From Deltaproteobacteria bacterium (lineage in GTDB: Bacteria; Desulfobacterota; Desulfobulbia; Desulfobulbales; Desulfobulbaceae), in NCBI GenBank assembly GCA_024280455.1, contig JAJRQC010000064.1, forward strand, positions 1-53,534: a stretch of 53,534 nucleotides of DNA, read 5' to 3'. The stretch's first letter is position 1; the number at the start of each line of letters is the position of its first letter. The notes below the pieces were generated by a model. That model saw only the letters and a list, made by a program, of their open reading frames with translations. It was not told the DNA's origin and did not search any database. A program made the position numbers and the translations under genes. Of the stretch, positions 9,877 to 20,996 are shown piece after piece.

Positions 9877-9954
9877 TAAAACTCGCTTGACATTTCCCGG
9901 AATAACTTCACGGGAATGGAAAAACTGAAAAATCAGAGTTCTGACGAAACCATC

Positions 9955-10818
9955 ATGAATATTAAAATCTTGTTTTTGCTCTGCTGTGCTCTGCTGCTTG
10001 TCGTGACCTCGCCTGCGATCGGTAAATGTATAAAAGGGAACTGTAAAAATGGTATGGGAACGTTTGTGCTGCCGCGTGGTGATAGATATGTCGGTTCGTT
10101 TCGAAACGGCAAGCCCGACGGCAAAGGTGTATTAAACTATGCCTCCGGCAACAAATATGAAGGGGATTTTCAAAACGGGAAACCCCATGGTGAGGGGACC
10201 TATATCTACGCTGACGGTGAAAAGTATGTCGGTAGCTATGAGCACGGCAAAAAAAGCGGCTATGGCGTGTATACCTGGGTCGATGGCACAACCTACAGTG
10301 GAGAGTATCTCAACGGGGTCAAGAATGGCCGGGGCAAGCGAATCTATCCCGATGGTTCTATATATGAGGGGCAATGTGTCGATGGGATGTTGACCGGCCA
10401 GGGAACGATGATCTGGCCTAACGGTGATAAATACGTCGGCAGTTTTAACGATGGTCTGATGTACGGCGAGGGTGTCATGTCCTGGAAAAACGGTGATACA
10501 TACGACGGATACTGGAAAGACGATACCATGGAGGGACAGGGAGTTTTTACCTGGAAAAATGGTGATGTGTATTCCGGTGAGTGGAGACGCAATAAAACGC
10601 ACGGCCAGGGCAAGTTTAGCTGGAAGGCCGGGGATTCTTATGAGGGGGAGTTTAAAAATGATGTAATCGACGGGGCGGGCATCTACAGGGGGAAGAATGG
10701 AAAAGTTGTTTACGGCAAATGGAAGGAAGGGGTGTTGTTGAAAAAACTGCCGCTCCCCGGGAAAAAAATAAAAGAAAAGGTTGTCCGGAGTTTGCCTGAT
10801 AACGGTACAATCGACTGA
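9955..10818 (+). CDS. Exported MORN-repeat protein
   Basis: This 287-residue protein starts with a clear signal peptide (MNIKILFLLCCALLLVVTSP, cleavage likely near AIG-KC) and then consists of about ten 23-residue MORN repeats of the form YxGxFxNGxxxGxGxxxWxNGD, for example KYVGSFNDGLMYGEGVMSWK and TYDGYWKDDTMEGQGVF. It ends with a basic tail (LPGKKIKEKVVRSL). An in-frame ATG at 9916 would place 13 polar residues before the signal peptide, so 9955 is preferred, although neither has a good ribosome site. MORN repeats form elongated beta-hairpin rods that bind partners or membranes. The stop overlaps the ATG of the next gene by one base, so the two are coupled and probably act together in the envelope. 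Confidence 0.85.
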   Translation: MNIKILFLLCCALLLVVTSPAIGKCIKGNCKNGMGTFVLPRGDRYVGSFRNGKPDGKGVLNYASGNKYEGDFQNGKPHGEGTYIYADGEKYVGSYEHGKKSGYGVYTWVDGTTYSGEYLNGVKNGRGKRIYPDGSIYEGQCVDGMLTGQGTMIWPNGDKYVGSFNDGLMYGEGVMSWKNGDTYDGYWKDDTMEGQGVFTWKNGDVYSGEWRRNKTHGQGKFSWKAGDSYEGEFKNDVIDGAGIYRGKNGKVVYGKWKEGVLLKKLPLPGKKIKEKVVRSLPDNGTID

Positions 10819-12614: not shown

Positions 12615-12778
12615 AAGGCTTTTGACCATTTTTTATGTTTAAAGGCTGTATTTGACTGGAAAGAAAACGAGTAATTTCTTTTTTTTTCTTGTCTCAAAAG
12701 CTTATTTTTGATATGTTTTACTTTAAAGATAAGAATTTAAAGGCATTGACGAGAATAAATAAAGGAAGGGGAGAAAGC

Positions 12779-13009
12779 GTGAAAAATAAGATTCTTGTAG
12801 GACTGTGTTGTCTTATGCTGATGAGTGCTACTTTGTTTGCCGCGGGATCAGTCTTGGCGAGCGGTGAACTCAATGAGGATAATCTGGACGTTAGCTGGGA
12901 TACTTCGGATGCTATCACCACAGGCGGTATGTCGATCCTGATGATGATGCCGGCAATTCTGGGTGCTGTTAAAGCTGGTTTGAATAAAATGCAGCAGAGT
13001 GTTGAGTAG
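12779..13009 (+). CDS. Small secreted protein of unknown function
   Basis: This 76-residue product starts at GTG 12779, preceded by GGAAGGGGAG, a strong ribosome site; the longer open frame from 12689 has none. It has a signal peptide (MKNKILVGLCCLMLMSATLF, likely cleavage after VLAS), a short acidic stretch (GELNEDNLDVSWDTSD) and a second hydrophobic segment GGMSILMMMPAILGAVKAGL. The mature part would be about 48 residues with one membrane-active or helical segment. I recognise no family. It stands alone between the TMTC-like gene and a good terminator (13032-13071), so it is probably its own short transcript unit or the end of the preceding operon. Confidence 0.6.
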   Translation: MKNKILVGLCCLMLMSATLFAAGSVLASGELNEDNLDVSWDTSDAITTGGMSILMMMPAILGAVKAGLNKMQQSVE

Positions 13010-13354
13010 TAAAAGAAAAATGCTGTTTTTTTACCCCTGGAAATGAAATGTACAGGGGTATTACTATTTTTGGCGCTGAAAAAATAAGAATTGAGAGCTT
13101 CTAACCCAGCATACTTTTTTAGGGTTGCAAGGATAACGCGATTGCCAAAGTCAAAGTTTGTTGAAAAATCCGACGGGGTTTTTGCGTGGTCAATTACAAG
13201 GAATTGTTTAACGCACTTGTTTCATTGTATGCGGCAAGGGATTGACTGCTCCGCTAGGAAGTTTGCTTTGCGCAGCTAGCCGTCGTTCTATGGCGAAAAA
13301 ATGTTGTGCTGAGTGTTCTTATGGGCGGCATGGGCAATCCAAACAGGTTTATTG
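13010..13354. other. Intergenic stretch before wzz
   Basis: Apart from the terminator at 13032-13071 I see no gene or clear repeat here. The open frame at 13091-13279 has no ribosome site, no domain and unusual composition. A promoter for wzz probably lies here but none stands out. Confidence 0.5.
13032..13071 (+). terminator. Intrinsic terminator
   Basis: TACCCCTG (13032-13039) pairs with CAGGGGTA (13053-13060), loop GAAATGAAATGTA, followed by TTACTATTTTT. It ends transcription of the small secreted protein gene. Confidence 0.75.
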
Positions 13355-14455
13355 ATGAGAGCGAATAATGCGAAGTCAGCGTTTAGTGATGGGGATACTT
13401 GTCATAGCGTGGTCGCAGGAGATGTAACTCTTGCGGAGTTGTTTCAGGCCTTGGTTCGACAACGAAGAATGATTTTCGGCGTAGTTTTTGCAGGTGTGAT
13501 TGTAGTGACATTGGTTACCTTTTTGATTTCACCGGTATACAGAAGTGAGTCGGTTATACTGCCTCCTCGGTCATTATATGTAGAGCGCTTAACGGTACCT
13601 GATTTATACGAAATTACATCCGCTGATCTTTATGCAAGAGTTATCAGGAATTTAAGAAGTAGCGATCTTCGTTACCGTTTTTTTAAAGAAAACAACCTGT
13701 TTGAAAAGCTACAGGGGAAAAAGGAGAGTGCAGATGCTGAATATGGTACATTCCTTGAAGATTTCGATGAGGTGATACGGGTTTAAAAGAGTTCTGGTAA
13801 GGATGAAGGTGACGATTTTTTTACCGTGACGATGGATGGGGCCGAACCGGAGTCGCTGAATGTCTGGTTGACTGGTTTTATAGATTTTGTTGATGGGTAT
13901 ACTATAAAAAATGTAACAGATGCCATTCTCGCAAAACAACACAGGCGCCAGGTTCAGCTTCAGAATCAGATTGAAGGGTTGCGAAATATAGCAAAAAGCA
14001 GGAGGCGGGACAGGATTACCAGGTTGGAAGAATCTGCAGCCATTGCTGAGCAATTAGGACTTTCAGGGGATTTGGAGTATTTGTATCCCTACAGTCAAAA
14101 AAGAGCTAAAGCCAACCTCGTGATTGTTATAGGGAAAGAGAGTCCGAAATATTTACGAGGATCCAGAGCATTACTTGCGGAAGCGAGGACGTTGAAAAAA
14201 AGAAAAAGCGATGACCCATTCATTGAGGATTTGAGAAGTTTACAGGAAAAGCTTTTTTTCTTGGAAAAATTGCAAATTGTGCCAAGAAGTGAGGTACATG
14301 CATTGCGTATCGATCAACGTGCGATGACGATTGAAGATCCTATTAAACCTAACCGTATCTTGATTATCGCTTTAGGTTTTCTCGTGAGCCTGTTTTTTGG
14401 TTTTTTTGTGGGATTTCTGAAAGATTTGTTTGAGGTAAAGCGATGTGAAGTGTAA
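13355..14455 (+). pseudogene. wzz: Wzz-type chain-length determinant interrupted by in-frame stop
   Basis: Bases 13355-14455 form one continuous frame of 366 codons broken only by TAA at 13784-13786 (codon 144). The N-terminal part has the Wzz layout: cytoplasmic start, TVLAELFQAL-like amphipathic stretch (DVTLAELFQALVRQRRMIFG), a membrane helix (FAGVIVVTLVTFLIS) and PVYRSESVILPP. After the stop the same frame continues with a coiled-coil-rich periplasmic part (QHRRQVQLQNQIEGL...) and ends with IEDPIKPNRILIIALGFLVS, the proline-rich motif and second membrane helix. Wzz co-polymerases set the modal length of Wzy-made polymers. A single C-to-T change (CAA to TAA) explains the stop. Unless a sequencing error, it should abolish function or yield two fragments. 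Confidence 0.85.
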
Positions 14456-14738: not shown

Positions 14739-15569
14739 ATGAAGATATATAAATTAATATCACCGGCTTTTTTAGTCGCCGTCTTGTCTGCTTGTATATT
14801 TTTTGCTTCAACGCTCTTGTCCAGGGCCGAGGGCAATGCTGAGCAAACAAGTTTTGCTGCAACCATTTCAATGGATGTTAAAAATAAATCCCTACGGAGT
14901 GTTCTTCAGGAAATATCCAAACAATCCGGTTACCAAATTGTAGTTAGCGATGATTTACTTGAAATTCCGATTACGGGTAATTTTCAGGGTACTTCCTTGA
15001 CGGCTCTGCTCGGCAGGATACTTAAGGGCACAAATGTTTTTATCTTAGAAGATGATCGACAAAAAACGATTACAGTCCTGACAAGCTTGTCAAAAAAAGA
15101 AGATGCTACTGCTATATCTATGGCAAATGAAGTGCTTGCATCTGGTCGCTATTCGCTTCATGATCTCCAAGGGGTTCAGAAGTCCCTTGACAAATCTCTC
15201 GCCACTTATGATGACAAGATTGAATCCTCGCCGGGTGTTTCTTATCAGAAATTAAAGGGGACTCAACTTCAACTTGATCAAAAGTTGAGTACAAGCTATG
15301 GAAAGCATGAAATTGAAGGTTCTCCAAGCGTAACCTATCAGCAATTATTGAATATTCAAGCTAATCTCAATGATACAATAAATAGAGAAAACAGTGGTGT
15401 TGCGGCTGCTTCCGGAGTAATATATACATTGGCAAGTCGGTCACAGGATGAATTGGACACCTTTGTTTTATCCTATGAAAGTAAAGTTGAGGCCTCACCA
15501 GGGGTCTCTTATAAAGAATTGCGCGCTAATCAGTTAAAACTTGACCAGCAGCTAACGGCTCATAATTAA
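14739..15569 (+). CDS. Exported STN-domain protein with 30-residue SPGVSY repeats
   Basis: This 276-residue protein starts at ATG 14739 with a signal peptide (SPAFLVAVLSACIFFASTLL, cleavage near SRAEG). Residues about 44-114 form an STN domain (secretin/TonB-receptor N-terminal: ISMDVKNKSLRSVLQEISKQ, then VVSDDLLEIPITGNFQGTSL and a TVL strand). No secretin, TonB-box or FecR part follows. Instead five imperfect units of about 30 residues run to the end (134-163, 164-194, 195-223, 224-252, 253-276), with consensus SPGVSYxxLxxxQxxLDxxL, predicted helical. The protein is therefore a periplasmic STN module on a repeat rod. It may partner an outer-membrane channel or the small secreted protein encoded 62 bases downstream. 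No known family covers the repeat part as far as I can tell. Confidence 0.7.
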   Translation: MKIYKLISPAFLVAVLSACIFFASTLLSRAEGNAEQTSFAATISMDVKNKSLRSVLQEISKQSGYQIVVSDDLLEIPITGNFQGTSLTALLGRILKGTNVFILEDDRQKTITVLTSLSKKEDATAISMANEVLASGRYSLHDLQGVQKSLDKSLATYDDKIESSPGVSYQKLKGTQLQLDQKLSTSYGKHEIEGSPSVTYQQLLNIQANLNDTINRENSGVAAASGVIYTLASRSQDELDTFVLSYESKVEASPGVSYKELRANQLKLDQQLTAHN

Positions 15570-15631
15570 AATAAGTGAGCCGATCTCTGGAATCTTTTTG
15601 ATTCCAATCAAAAAAAATAGAGGAGTAAACT

Positions 15632-15988
15632 ATGAAAATGAAAGCTATGGTTGTCAGTACGTTATCGGTAGGGCTTGTTTTTGGAACTTTAAGCCTGGCA
15701 AACGCTACATCATGGGTGTCAGCTTGGGTTAACCGTTCTTCAACTACAAATGGAACCGTGCAGGTGATGTTGCGGTATGACTCCGGAACTGGATGTTCTT
15801 GGGGGAGTAGCGTTGGTAATGCCACAAATGTTTGGTTTGCTTTGCCAACAGCAATGAATGACCAGGCTCTTGCTGTTGCATTGACCGCTATTTCACTTGG
15901 AAAAACTGTCCGGGTTGGAATTGAAACTTGCCCTGATACCACAACTAGCTTAGGGGGAACTATCTCTTCCATAGGGCTTGATCAGTAA
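15632..15988 (+). CDS. Small secreted protein with two cysteines, unknown function
   Basis: This 118-residue product has a strong ribosome site (GAGGAG) before ATG 15632 and a signal peptide (MVVSTLSVGLVFGTLSLANA, cleavage after ANA at about residue 25). The mature ~93 residues contain two cysteines (C55 in GTGCSWG, C100 in IETCPDT), likely a disulfide, and the pattern ALTAISLGKTVRVGIETC near the C-terminus. That pattern reminds me of small secreted beta-barrel (OB-fold-like) proteins, but this is only a resemblance. It follows the STN-repeat gene by 62 bases and precedes a strong terminator, so the two may be co-transcribed and work together outside the inner membrane. Confidence 0.65.
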   Translation: MKMKAMVVSTLSVGLVFGTLSLANATSWVSAWVNRSSTTNGTVQVMLRYDSGTGCSWGSSVGNATNVWFALPTAMNDQALAVALTAISLGKTVRVGIETCPDTTTSLGGTISSIGLDQ

Positions 15989-16318
15989 TTCACCTTCAAA
16001 TAGTTCTATGACTGATAACAATTTTTTGTTGAATGGTTGTTGGGTTGAATAAAATGTTTACAGTATATTCTTCTTGTCAGATGACTGTGGTATACTAGTA
16101 CGTTCTCCTCTCAGTCGGAGTCTTGTTAGCGATAGGCAGATTTAAATGGAAAAGATTTCCATTTAAATCTGCCTTTTAGCTTTTTTATACAGGGCAAGAC
16201 TTTTCTGAGCCCACAGCGATATGTACAATCATTTCCCTTGTGATTACTCATCGTTTCCGTCGAAGTTTGTTGAATAGCATCACATCAATTACCCTTTCTT
16301 TAAAGCCTGATTTCAACT
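15989..16318. other. Intergenic stretch with terminator
   Basis: The main feature is the long hairpin terminator at 16134-16187. Upstream of it TATACT at 16091-16096 could be a -10, without a convincing -35. No gene is seen. Transcription of the sugar-nucleotide gene block at 16319 probably starts after the terminator. Confidence 0.55.
16134..16187 (+). terminator. Strong intrinsic terminator
   Basis: A 19-base perfect stem, AGGCAGATTTAAATGGAAA (16134-16152) with TTTCCATTTAAATCTGCCT (16156-16174), loop AGA, is followed by TTTAGCTTTTTTA. It separates the 12779-15988 region from the sugar-nucleotide block. Confidence 0.85.
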
Positions 16319-19749: not shown

Positions 19750-20996
19750 TTGTCTCCCATATCTTTCCGTAAAAATTTTCTCTGGAATCTTGTCGCAAAT
19801 CTGGCAAATGGCGTTGCCCGTTGGGGGATTGTCATGAGCATTGCCAAGTATGGGAGCCCTGAACTTGTCGGACAGTTTACTCTTGCAACTGGTCTTGTCC
19901 TGCCGGTTTATGCCTTTTTAAACCTGCAACTGCGAGTTGTTTATATAACCGGTCGATATGGAGCATATCCTTTCGGGCATTATCTCAGTCTCCGTTTACT
20001 GACCATTCTTATTTCTCTGTTTTGTTGTGGGTTAGGTGCAATATTTTTACGTGATCTTGATGGTATATTGATGGTTGTAATGGGCTACAGCCTTCTCAAG
20101 GGAACCCAGGCTGTCGCCGATATTTTCTATGCGCCTCTGCAGAAGAATGAGCGTATCGACCTGATGTCCCTGTCAATGATTGCAAAAAGCGTTGGCAGTT
20201 TTTTACTGGTCATTATAACCATGGCGGTCAGCGGTAACCTGCTGTTGGCAATCTCCTGTATGCTTGCCTGGGAAGGAGTTTTTACTGTTATCGTCGATAG
20301 AAGGTTGGCGAGTCTTCATTCCAGAGTACGCTTGATCATGCATAAAAACACCATGGTGAAGTTGTTTAAGGAATCTTTTCCCGTAGGCATTGCAACGGGT
20401 TTGACCATGCTCAATGGCTCAATCCCACGATTTATTGTCGAACATTATCGTACTGTTCAGGAAACAGGATATTTTGGTGCCATTCAGTATTTTTTATTGC
20501 GGGCAGTTTGGTGATCGTTGCCATAAATACTGCTGCAATTCCCCGGCTGGCCCGTTTGTATCAGCAGCAGGAAAAAAGAAAGTTTTATCGGTTGGTATCA
20601 CGTCTGGTCGGGTTTGGTTTTATTGTTGGTTTTTGCATTGTTCTGTTCATCTCTTTCTTTGGTGCGTCAGTTTTGCAATTATTGTATACAGCGGAATACG
20701 CTGCTTATGCAAAAGAATTACGAGTGGTTGTTGTTGCCAGTGTCATGCAGTTACCATGTACGGCTATTGCAGGAAGTCTCTTATCTCTTGGTAAATATTG
20801 GAATATGGTTTTTGTCCTTGTTGCCGCAGTCATCGTGTCTATCGGGACAGGGGTCCTTCTGGTGCAGAATGCAGGGATTGCCGGTGCCGCGAATTCCATG
20901 CTTTATTCATCATGTGTTCAACTTCTTCTGGCGAGTTGTTTTCTCTACTGGTCGTATCGTTCCAGGTCTATTTGGAATAGAAATTTTGAAGGTTAG
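19750..20996 (+). pseudogene. wzx: Wzx-type polysaccharide flippase, frameshifted
   Basis: Two frames make up one MOP/Wzx-like flippase of about 415 residues: 19750-20514 (starting SFRKNFLWNLVANLANG, about eight hydrophobic segments) and 20508-20996 (VIVAINTAAIPRLARLYQQQ..., about four more). The shift lies in the T-run at 20490-20495: six T in the sequence, whereas seven would read YFFIAGSLVIVAINTAA without a break. Wzx proteins flip undecaprenyl-linked repeat units to the periplasm. The first frame has only a TTG start (19750) and no clear ribosome site, so the N-terminus may also be altered. Loss, phase variation by slippage, or a sequencing error are all possible. Confidence 0.82.

What the first reader, a model, noticed from the sequence alone, without database searches (positions are those of the whole stretch)
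14739..15988. Stand-alone STN domain on a 30-residue SPGVSY repeat rod, paired with a small two-cysteine secreted protein
STN domains normally cap secretins, TonB receptors or FecR-linked sensors. Here the STN module (44-114) is followed only by five repeats with consensus SPGVSYxxLxxxQxxLDxxL, then the gene ends. A 118-residue secreted protein with C55 and C100 follows at 62 bases, and both lie inside a polysaccharide locus closed by a strong terminator. I know no described system with this make-up; it could be a periplasmic adaptor/ruler and its secreted client, or part of an exporter.
Basis: partly seen in the sequence, partly recalled or inferred. Interest (0 to 1): 0.65.

Follow-up and report, generated by a model that had tools for sequence, protein, structure and literature searches.

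The report
Travelling two-gene secretion-linked cassette
A periplasmic protein made of a secretin-type docking domain and helical repeats, and a small secreted protein encoded next to it, turn out to be a recurring two-gene unit that seems to move between bacteria of one order, and in four genomes the unit sits at the end of a type II protein-secretion operon.

Summary
14739-15569 encodes a signal peptide, an STN/N0 domain (about 42-115) and a tail of about 29-residue repeats; 62 bases on, 15632-15988 encodes a 118-residue secreted protein ('TwoC') with C55 and C100. Neither matches a curated family over its length. The pair is not unique: of 45 TwoC places in 195 genomes (the window's own and relatives), 27 have an STN-repeat gene within 2.5 kb on the same strand; of 29 strong STN places not cut by a contig edge, 26 have TwoC beside them. 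The two proteins' trees agree with each other and disagree with GspD and with the two families, so the pair appears to travel as a unit, mostly into surface-polysaccharide loci. In four genomes it follows gspE of a type II secretion (T2SS) operon, and all 28 paired genomes have T2SS GspC. TwoC is predicted, at modest confidence, as an OB fold like toxin B subunits, a class that T2SS exports. Best reading: a periplasmic T2SS docking adaptor and its exported client; both roles are inferred. Closest in kind: DotD and VreA, stand-alone STN/N0 proteins. New variant of a known kind.

The parts
14739..15569 (+). STN-repeat protein gene, 276 aa (P0001)
   Evidence: profile of such proteins matches at E<=1e-20 in 32 of 195 genomes, window's own included
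14739..14828 (+). signal peptide, about residues 1-30 (read by eye; cleavage near SRA-EG)
   Evidence: sequence; no signal-peptide program was run
14862..15083 (+). STN/N0 domain, residues 42-115
15084..15566 (+). repeat tail, residues 116-276; predicted helices 140-157, 168-186, 197-216, 223-249, 258-275, about one per repeat of about 29 residues
   Evidence: period 29, z 9.1; helices, pLDDT 31-57 in blocks of ten, low
15632..15988 (+). TwoC gene, 118-aa small secreted protein (P0002), C55 and C100, motif DQALAVALTAISLGK
   Evidence: predicted b-b-b-a-b-b OB fold
15632..15706 (+). TwoC signal peptide, about residues 1-25 (read by eye; ANA-T)
   Evidence: sequence; no signal-peptide program was run
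16134..16174 (+). intrinsic-terminator-like site (19-pair stem, T-rich tail) after the pair

Best explanation
The two genes form a co-inherited cassette serving type II secretion. SHOWN: recurrent adjacency, coupled evolution, position after gspE in four genomes, co-presence with T2SS. INFERRED: both proteins cross the inner membrane by Sec. The STN domain, the same fold as the N0 domain with which GspD binds GspC, docks on the periplasmic entrance of the T2SS (GspC HR or the secretin). The tail of about 30-residue helical repeats carries several copies of a binding site for the cognate TwoC protein, so that folded, disulphide-bonded TwoC is concentrated at the secretin and exported. Outside, TwoC, an OB fold of the toxin-B-subunit type, acts on the cell surface, probably by binding sugar or surface polymer, which would fit the habit of the cassette of settling in polysaccharide loci.
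For: (1) Pairing: 27 of 45 TwoC places have an STN-repeat gene within 2.5 kb on the same strand; of 32 STN places at E<=1e-20, 26 have TwoC, 3 do not and 3 are cut by contig edges; genome co-occurrence 28 both, 4 STN only, 10 TwoC only, 153 neither. (2) Coupled evolution over 27 genomes: STN and TwoC distances correlate (rho 0.45; 0.45 with GspD held; 0 of 2000 permutations as high), while each is nearly unrelated to GspD (0.11 and 0.05). Holding family f12 as one clade is rejected in both trees (AU 2.7e-5 and 1.7e-44), and the same family-crossing partners recur in both (G000+G127, G051+G142/G156, G035+G122, G048 with members of genus g33). (3) T2SS: the pair is the next thing after gspE on the same strand in G018 (12 bp), G012 (121 bp), G030 (691 bp) and G011 (795 bp), three genera. 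All 28 paired genomes have GspC, against 106 of the other 167. (4) Folds: STN like GspD/PilQ N0; TwoC OB-like, nearest chains including B subunits. GspD N0-GspC HR contact is essential for T2SS, and T2SS exports folded AB5 toxins (PMC3169554, passages seen).
Against: Only 4 of 28 pairs lie at a T2SS operon; in the window genome the T2SS is on another contig (C150). Co-presence with GspC is confounded by kinship: within family f1 alone p is 0.059. By sequence the STN domain is nearest PilQ, the type IV pilus secretin, not GspD. Models are weak: TwoC mean pLDDT 58.5, no Foldseek match with E<=0.001, and single-stranded-DNA-binding, complement C3 and TIMP chains rank among the B subunits; tail pLDDT 31-57. 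18 TwoC places have no STN neighbour; of 19 TwoC loci outside the order none had an STN gene, and none of the 18 STN loci fetched there (of 26 found) had TwoC. Re-pairing occurs: the STN of G159 groups with its genus but its TwoC with G018, G009, G012 and G030.
Confidence: 0.4

Rival explanations
1. Surface-glycan module independent of T2SS: TwoC is a lectin-like periplasmic or surface protein that binds the strain's polysaccharide, and the STN-repeat protein tethers it or links it to the polysaccharide exporter; the four T2SS placements are incidental.
For: Flanking genes are rich in polysaccharide functions: of 98 flanking ORFs scanned, ABC_tran 13, Glycos_transf_2 11, ABC_membrane 6, Wzt_C 4, DegT_DnrJ_EryC1 4, ABC2_membrane 3, Wzy_C 3 (one ORF can count in several families). 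The window pair lies between Wzz-like and polysaccharide-biosynthesis genes.
Against: No single polysaccharide gene family is constant beside the pair: after the STN gene (12 genera), one mixed component (9 genera, 21 of 29 loci; probably glycosyltransferases and others chained together) and TwoC (7 genera), no cluster reaches more than 6 genera. Four pairs sit at gspE. Polysaccharide loci also take up foreign genes readily (recalled).
Confidence: 0.2
2. Conflict or surface-variation cassette: TwoC is a secreted, fast-diversifying effector or phage/competitor-facing protein, and the STN-repeat protein is its carrier or protects the producer.
For: Very divergent sequences (the other 23 TwoC rows are 16-55% identical to the window's), transfer between families, settlement in variable surface loci.
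Against: No PADLOC match for either protein at E<=1; no third gene family follows the pair across genera; no match in 72,556 plasmid records.
Confidence: 0.13
3. Docking factor for the type IV pilus secretin PilQ rather than GspD.
For: Nearest sequence matches of the STN domain are PilQ N0 (4ar0 E 1.7e-5).
Against: No pilus gene stood out beside the pair in the neighbourhood clusters and tally (25 of 92 families shown), whereas T2SS genes did.
Confidence: 0.08
4. Cell-surface signalling like VreA: the STN domain touches a FecR-type anti-sigma factor.
For: Weak FecR_C match (E 0.0056; 6 of 24 relatives at E<=0.1); Foldseek hits to PupR and FpvA/PupA signalling domains; VreA is a stand-alone STN protein beside a T2SS (PMC2729926, passages).
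Against: No FecR match at E<=0.001 anywhere in the window's genome (the family rang in 4 of 14 control genomes); no sigma or FecR family among the 25 commonest of 92 families next to the pairs (the other 67 were not shown).
Confidence: 0.04

Closest known systems
[quoted passage not shown]
   Same: A separate protein whose domain has the secretin N0 fold and that belongs to a secretion machine; Dot/Icm chains (identified as DotD by recall) are among the Foldseek matches of the STN model.
   Different: DotD is a lipoprotein; repeats and a paired small secreted protein were not mentioned in the passages seen. Dot/Icm is type IV, and the link here is to type II.
VreA of the PUMA3 signalling system, Pseudomonas aeruginosa (PMC2729926, passages seen)
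   Same: Stand-alone, mostly soluble STN protein lacking a beta-barrel, encoded next to a T2SS (Hxc).
   Different: VreA has a TolA/TonB-like C-terminal domain and works with VreI/VreR; here the tail is repeats, a secreted protein is paired, and the window genome has no FecR match.
N0 domain of secretins GspD (T2SS) and PilQ (type IV pilus)
   Same: Same fold as residues 42-115.
   Different: No N1/N2 or secretin domain follows; the genome's GspD (763 aa) is separate, and its opening sequence looks like an N0 domain (by eye).
OB-fold B subunits of AB5-type toxins, and SilF/CipA small proteins (structures listed)
   Same: Predicted strand order b-b-b-a-b-b with the helix between strands 3 and 4; secreted, small.
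   Different: No sequence similarity of note in the PDB; no A subunit or toxin gene was recognised beside the pair (ORF lists read by eye; the output of 32 was cut); the fold match is middling, so common descent is not shown.

Membership tests
Secretins (GspD/PilQ) | C-terminal secretin domain and N1/N2 modules after N0 | tested here: not met
   Pfam and NCBIfam scans find only the N0-type STN stretch; the protein ends after the repeats
STN domain proteins (Pfam PF07660) | STN fold of about 50-75 residues | tested here: met
   Window protein below the Pfam cut-off (23.2 vs 28.4 bits); 11 of 24 relatives match at E<=0.1; fold match to N0/STN structures
TonB-dependent transducer | plug and beta-barrel after the STN domain | tested here: not met
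   No such domain found in 276 aa
VreA / FecR-type cell-surface signalling | cognate FecR-type anti-sigma factor | tested here: not met
   0 FecR matches at E<=0.001 in the window genome
VreA / FecR-type cell-surface signalling | TolA/TonB-like C-terminal domain | tested here: inconclusive
   Tail modelled almost wholly as helices, at low confidence
DotD-like N0 accessory of a secretion machine | separate N0-fold protein | tested here: met
DotD-like N0 accessory of a secretion machine | lipoprotein anchored in the outer membrane | tested here: inconclusive
   LSAC at 16-19 resembles a lipobox but a hydrophobic stretch continues after it; the cysteine is not a conserved column (by eye)
T2SS component or accessory | encoded with T2SS genes | tested here: inconclusive
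   Met in 4 of 28 paired genomes; not met in the window genome, where T2SS is on contig C150
T2SS component or accessory | physical contact with GspC/GspD | not testable with these tools
   no complex prediction offered
T2SS substrate (TwoC) | secretion lost without GspD | not testable with these tools
   needs a mutant
AB5 B-subunit-type OB fold (TwoC) | OB fold, helix between strands 3 and 4 | tested here: inconclusive
   Topology agrees in a model of pLDDT 58.5; best Foldseek E 4.9e-3 (SilF), B-subunit chains E 0.017 and weaker; VIA Z 9.4 for SilF, 6.7-7.6 for B subunits, middling
DUF5992 (PF19454) | match over the curated cut-off | tested here: not met
   E 0.17, 12.3 vs 23.8 bits

The most novel reading that the evidence does not exclude
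A new class of exchangeable 'substrate cartridge' for type II secretion: the STN domain plugs into the conserved GspC/GspD entrance, and the repeat tail, swapped together with TwoC, acts as a multivalent strap on which several TwoC OB-fold subunits line up, perhaps as a ring like toxin B subunits, before export. By acquiring the two-gene cassette a bacterium would add a new exported client to its existing secretion machine.
Probability: 0.13. Interest if true: 0.85.

Novelty: new variant of a known kind. Interest (0 to 1): 0.6.

Why it matters
How T2SS recognises its substrates is called a major outstanding question in PMC3169554 (passage seen, 2011). A travelling pair of an N0-type docking domain on a repeat tail and a cognate small secreted protein would give a genetically separable adaptor-client system in which recognition could be tested directly, by swapping tails and clients between natural variants. 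Even if the T2SS link is wrong, the work defines a recurrent, apparently horizontally moving two-gene unit of Desulfobulbales for which I found no description in the held library.

Tried and rejected
Considered and rejected: lone oddity; secretin or TonB-receptor fragment (no further domains); FecR-type sensor; known defence system; plasmid-borne in the plasmid collection (no match); DNA tandem repeat; DUF5992 or Laminin_G_3 membership of TwoC (sub-threshold). P0001 alone found nothing in genome contigs (records of the window's own genome may be left out there). The A3 scan gave 7 named loci, titled Desulfobulbaceae, Desulfocapsaceae, Desulfocapsa or Deltaproteobacteria; the two families belong to Desulfobulbales. 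A first T2SS count over 29 genomes (including G009 and G142, whose genes are not adjacent on one contig, and leaving out G036) was replaced by the 28. Literature searches for the pair or for stand-alone STN with T2SS (listings only, apart from the three papers cited) listed nothing that describes it; most subscription papers are not held. VIA-align on the STN model and the viral fold library were not run. Phyla outside the window's were not sampled beyond the plasmid collection and the pattern scans of genome contigs.

Full report
WHAT IS THERE. Window 14739-15569 (+) encodes P0001, 276 aa: signal peptide (by eye), STN/N0 domain about 42-115, then 161 residues of tail. After 62 bases, 15632-15988 encodes P0002 ('TwoC'), 118 aa, signal peptide (by eye), C55 and C100. 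A 19-pair terminator-like site follows at 16134-16174. The tail repeat is significant at protein level: best period 29, z 9.1, 0 of 300 shuffles as high; it is not visible in DNA. Pfam, NCBIfam, PADLOC and PDB sequence searches give no full-length match; STN itself is sub-threshold in Pfam (E 6.1e-5).

THE PAIR RECURS. A search of 195 genomes (the window's own and 194 from its genus, family and order) with P0001 found matches in 27, the own genome included. One other was full-length (G127, another family, 38% identical), with a TwoC (56% identical) directly downstream. Many of the other hits are STN domains followed by other repeats, often of the form GMTxxEIxxLHxxQ. Aligning the small proteins found beside them (A1, 24 rows) and searching again found TwoC at 45 places in 38 of 195 genomes. 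The STN-repeat profile (A2) gave 47 rows, 45 places once two second pieces are set aside, 32 of them at E<=1e-20. Of the 45 TwoC places 27 have an STN place within 2.5 kb on the same strand. Of the 32 strong STN places 26 have TwoC; G009 (TwoC 8 kb off), G042 and G117 do not; G057, G142 and G194 are cut by contig edges, and the TwoC of G142 lies at the edge of another contig. TwoC is downstream in 26 of 27 pairs and upstream in G024; in G036 it is cut by the contig end. One further divergent pair, G058, was found only through TwoC. Genome co-occurrence: 28 both, 4 STN only, 10 TwoC only, 153 neither. A1 and A2 were built mostly from paired loci, which favours finding paired members; the 18 unpaired TwoC places show that the search is not blind to others. 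None of the seven congeners G001-G007 has a match to either profile.

REPEATS ARE PART OF THE ARCHITECTURE. Of 28 STN proteins tested, 23 have a best period of 28-32 with 0 of 300 shuffles as high; G011 has period 26 (1 of 300), G193 is weak (5 of 300), and G058 (22), G142 (98; cut by a contig edge) and G035 (165) show none. Repeat types differ between lineages; the tails of G051, G156 and G036 are of quite another kind and go with a distinct TwoC type (by eye).

COUPLED EVOLUTION. On 27 genomes, tree distances of the STN domain (tails left out) and TwoC correlate, rho 0.45, unchanged with GspD held, 0 of 2000 permutations as high; STN-GspD is 0.11 and TwoC-GspD 0.05. The set includes G009 and G142, whose genes are not adjacent on one contig, and G058; it leaves out G153 (partial GspD), G049 (TwoC identical to that of G053) and G036 (TwoC cut). 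IQ-TREE trees reject family f12 as one clade for STN (AU 2.7e-5) and TwoC (1.7e-44). The family-crossing groups G000+G127, G051+G142/G156, G035+G122 and G048 with members of genus g33 occur in both trees, with support values of 76-100. Long branches are present, single forks are unsure, and one pair (G159) seems to have exchanged its partner. Co-transfer, or much shared loss, explains this; either way the two genes are inherited together.

WHERE IT SITS. Most copies lie among glycosyltransferases, ABC exporters, sugar-nucleotide enzymes or methyltransferases: Pfam tally of 98 flanking ORFs, drawn from 27 loci, two ORFs of at least 150 aa each side, those over 1200 aa dropped, some of them spurious antisense ORFs. 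In three genera the pair ends a T2SS operon: gspM-N-C-D-E then STN then TwoC in G012 and G018 (gaps 121 and 12 bp), and gspE then STN then TwoC in G030 (691 bp) and G011 (795 bp) (GspC by Pfam, GspC/D/E by similarity to the window genome's, the other names by eye). The 3 T2SSE hits miss G011, where the ORF caller took antisense ORFs. GspC (PF11356) is found in 134 of 195 genomes and in 28 of 28 paired genomes (27 and G058), p 1.3e-5, but kinship confounds this and within family f1 p is 0.059. In the other 24 paired genomes GspC is on another contig or over 300 kb away (places). The window genome has a complete-looking T2SS (GspG to E, with GspF, by eye) on contig C150.

OUTSIDE THE ORDER. In 395 genomes of the phylum, TwoC-like proteins reach E<=1e-5 in 20 genomes and STN profile matches E<=1e-8 in 28, three of each from within the order or the window itself. 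I fetched all 19 TwoC places outside the order and 18 of 26 STN places there (the 8 left out have long frames of 393-956 aa). None of the 37 showed the partner, though some contigs are short. So the pairing looks peculiar to Desulfobulbales (family titles, lineage). Two genomes of another family (L193, L194) carry STN plus GMTRREFEAA repeats without TwoC.

STRUCTURE. AlphaFold (7-row alignments): P0001 STN pLDDT 64-82 in blocks of ten, tail five helices at 31-57; P0002 strands 26-32, 44-52, 65-70, helix 73-89, strands 93-99, 108-116, mean pLDDT 58.5. The STN model matches PilQ N0, InvG, Dot/Icm chains (DotD by recall), GspD N0, PupA/FpvA and PupR; 4 matches have E<=0.001. The TwoC model's best matches are SilF and toxin B subunits, none with E<=0.001, with single-stranded-DNA-binding proteins and complement C3 chains among them; VIA Z is 9.4 for SilF, 8.9 for CipA, about 7-7.6 for B subunits and 8 for C3 chains. 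I take an OB-like fold as likely and descent from toxin subunits as unshown.

MECHANISM. Shown: recurrent adjacency, co-inheritance, operon position in four genomes; STN fold by model. Inferred: docking of STN on the T2SS entrance, tail-TwoC binding, export of TwoC, and its outside role. The inference rests on the known GspD N0-GspC HR contact and on T2SS export of folded AB5 toxins, with a B pentamer able to bind at the GspD vestibule (PMC3169554, passages). Against it stand the 24 pairs away from T2SS and the closer sequence likeness of the STN domain to PilQ. The signalling rival is disfavoured because the window genome has no FecR match.

KNOWN OR NEW. Stand-alone STN/N0 proteins are known (DotD, PMC2951367; VreA, PMC2729926; passages of both seen). 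The make-up STN plus helical repeats plus cognate small secreted protein was not found in the held literature. I file it as a new variant of a known kind, the separate N0-type accessory of a secretion machine, with a cassette-like client.

Noticed in passing
window 13313-14455: Wzz-like chain-length gene just upstream is split: a Wzz-type N-terminal part and a GNVR-type C-terminal part are in the same frame, separated by an in-frame TAA; pseudogene, true stop or assembly error.
   Followed up: partly
window 19750-20996: A flippase-like membrane protein is split over two overlapping ORFs in different frames (by eye).
   Followed up: no
window 9916-10818: Secreted protein made almost wholly of MORN repeats (E 9.9e-55, 9 stretches) inside the polysaccharide locus.
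   Followed up: no
window 12689-13009: 106-aa protein with hydrophobic segments and no Pfam match at E<=1 directly upstream of the Wzz-like gene.
   Followed up: no
L211, L212, L215, L216, L219, L220, L221 (start or end of each region): In 7 of 11 fetched T2SS regions a large protein with repeated 'DGxIxVxGYxxDGSLDxxFG'-like motifs (probably a beta-propeller) is encoded just before the first pseudopilin genes (by eye); a possible constant T2SS partner or client.
   Followed up: no
L225:8073-8630: A stand-alone 185-aa STN protein without a TwoC neighbour faces gspE of the T2SS operon from the opposite strand in another genus.
   Followed up: no
L193, L194: STN proteins with 'DPMDEEILPP...GMTRREFEAA' repeats and no TwoC in another family of the phylum.
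   Followed up: no
L209, L227, L228: Other stand-alone STN proteins end in HEAT-like repeats or a PDZ-like segment (by eye).
   Followed up: no
L104, L114, L111, L117: Unpaired TwoC-like proteins lie next to YD-repeat-like or other apparently secreted proteins, sometimes in tandem (by eye).
   Followed up: no
A1 alignment, window and G127 rows: The window-type TwoC lacks the N-terminal cysteine of the other 22 of 24 rows and has C100 instead, suggesting a rewired disulphide.
   Followed up: no
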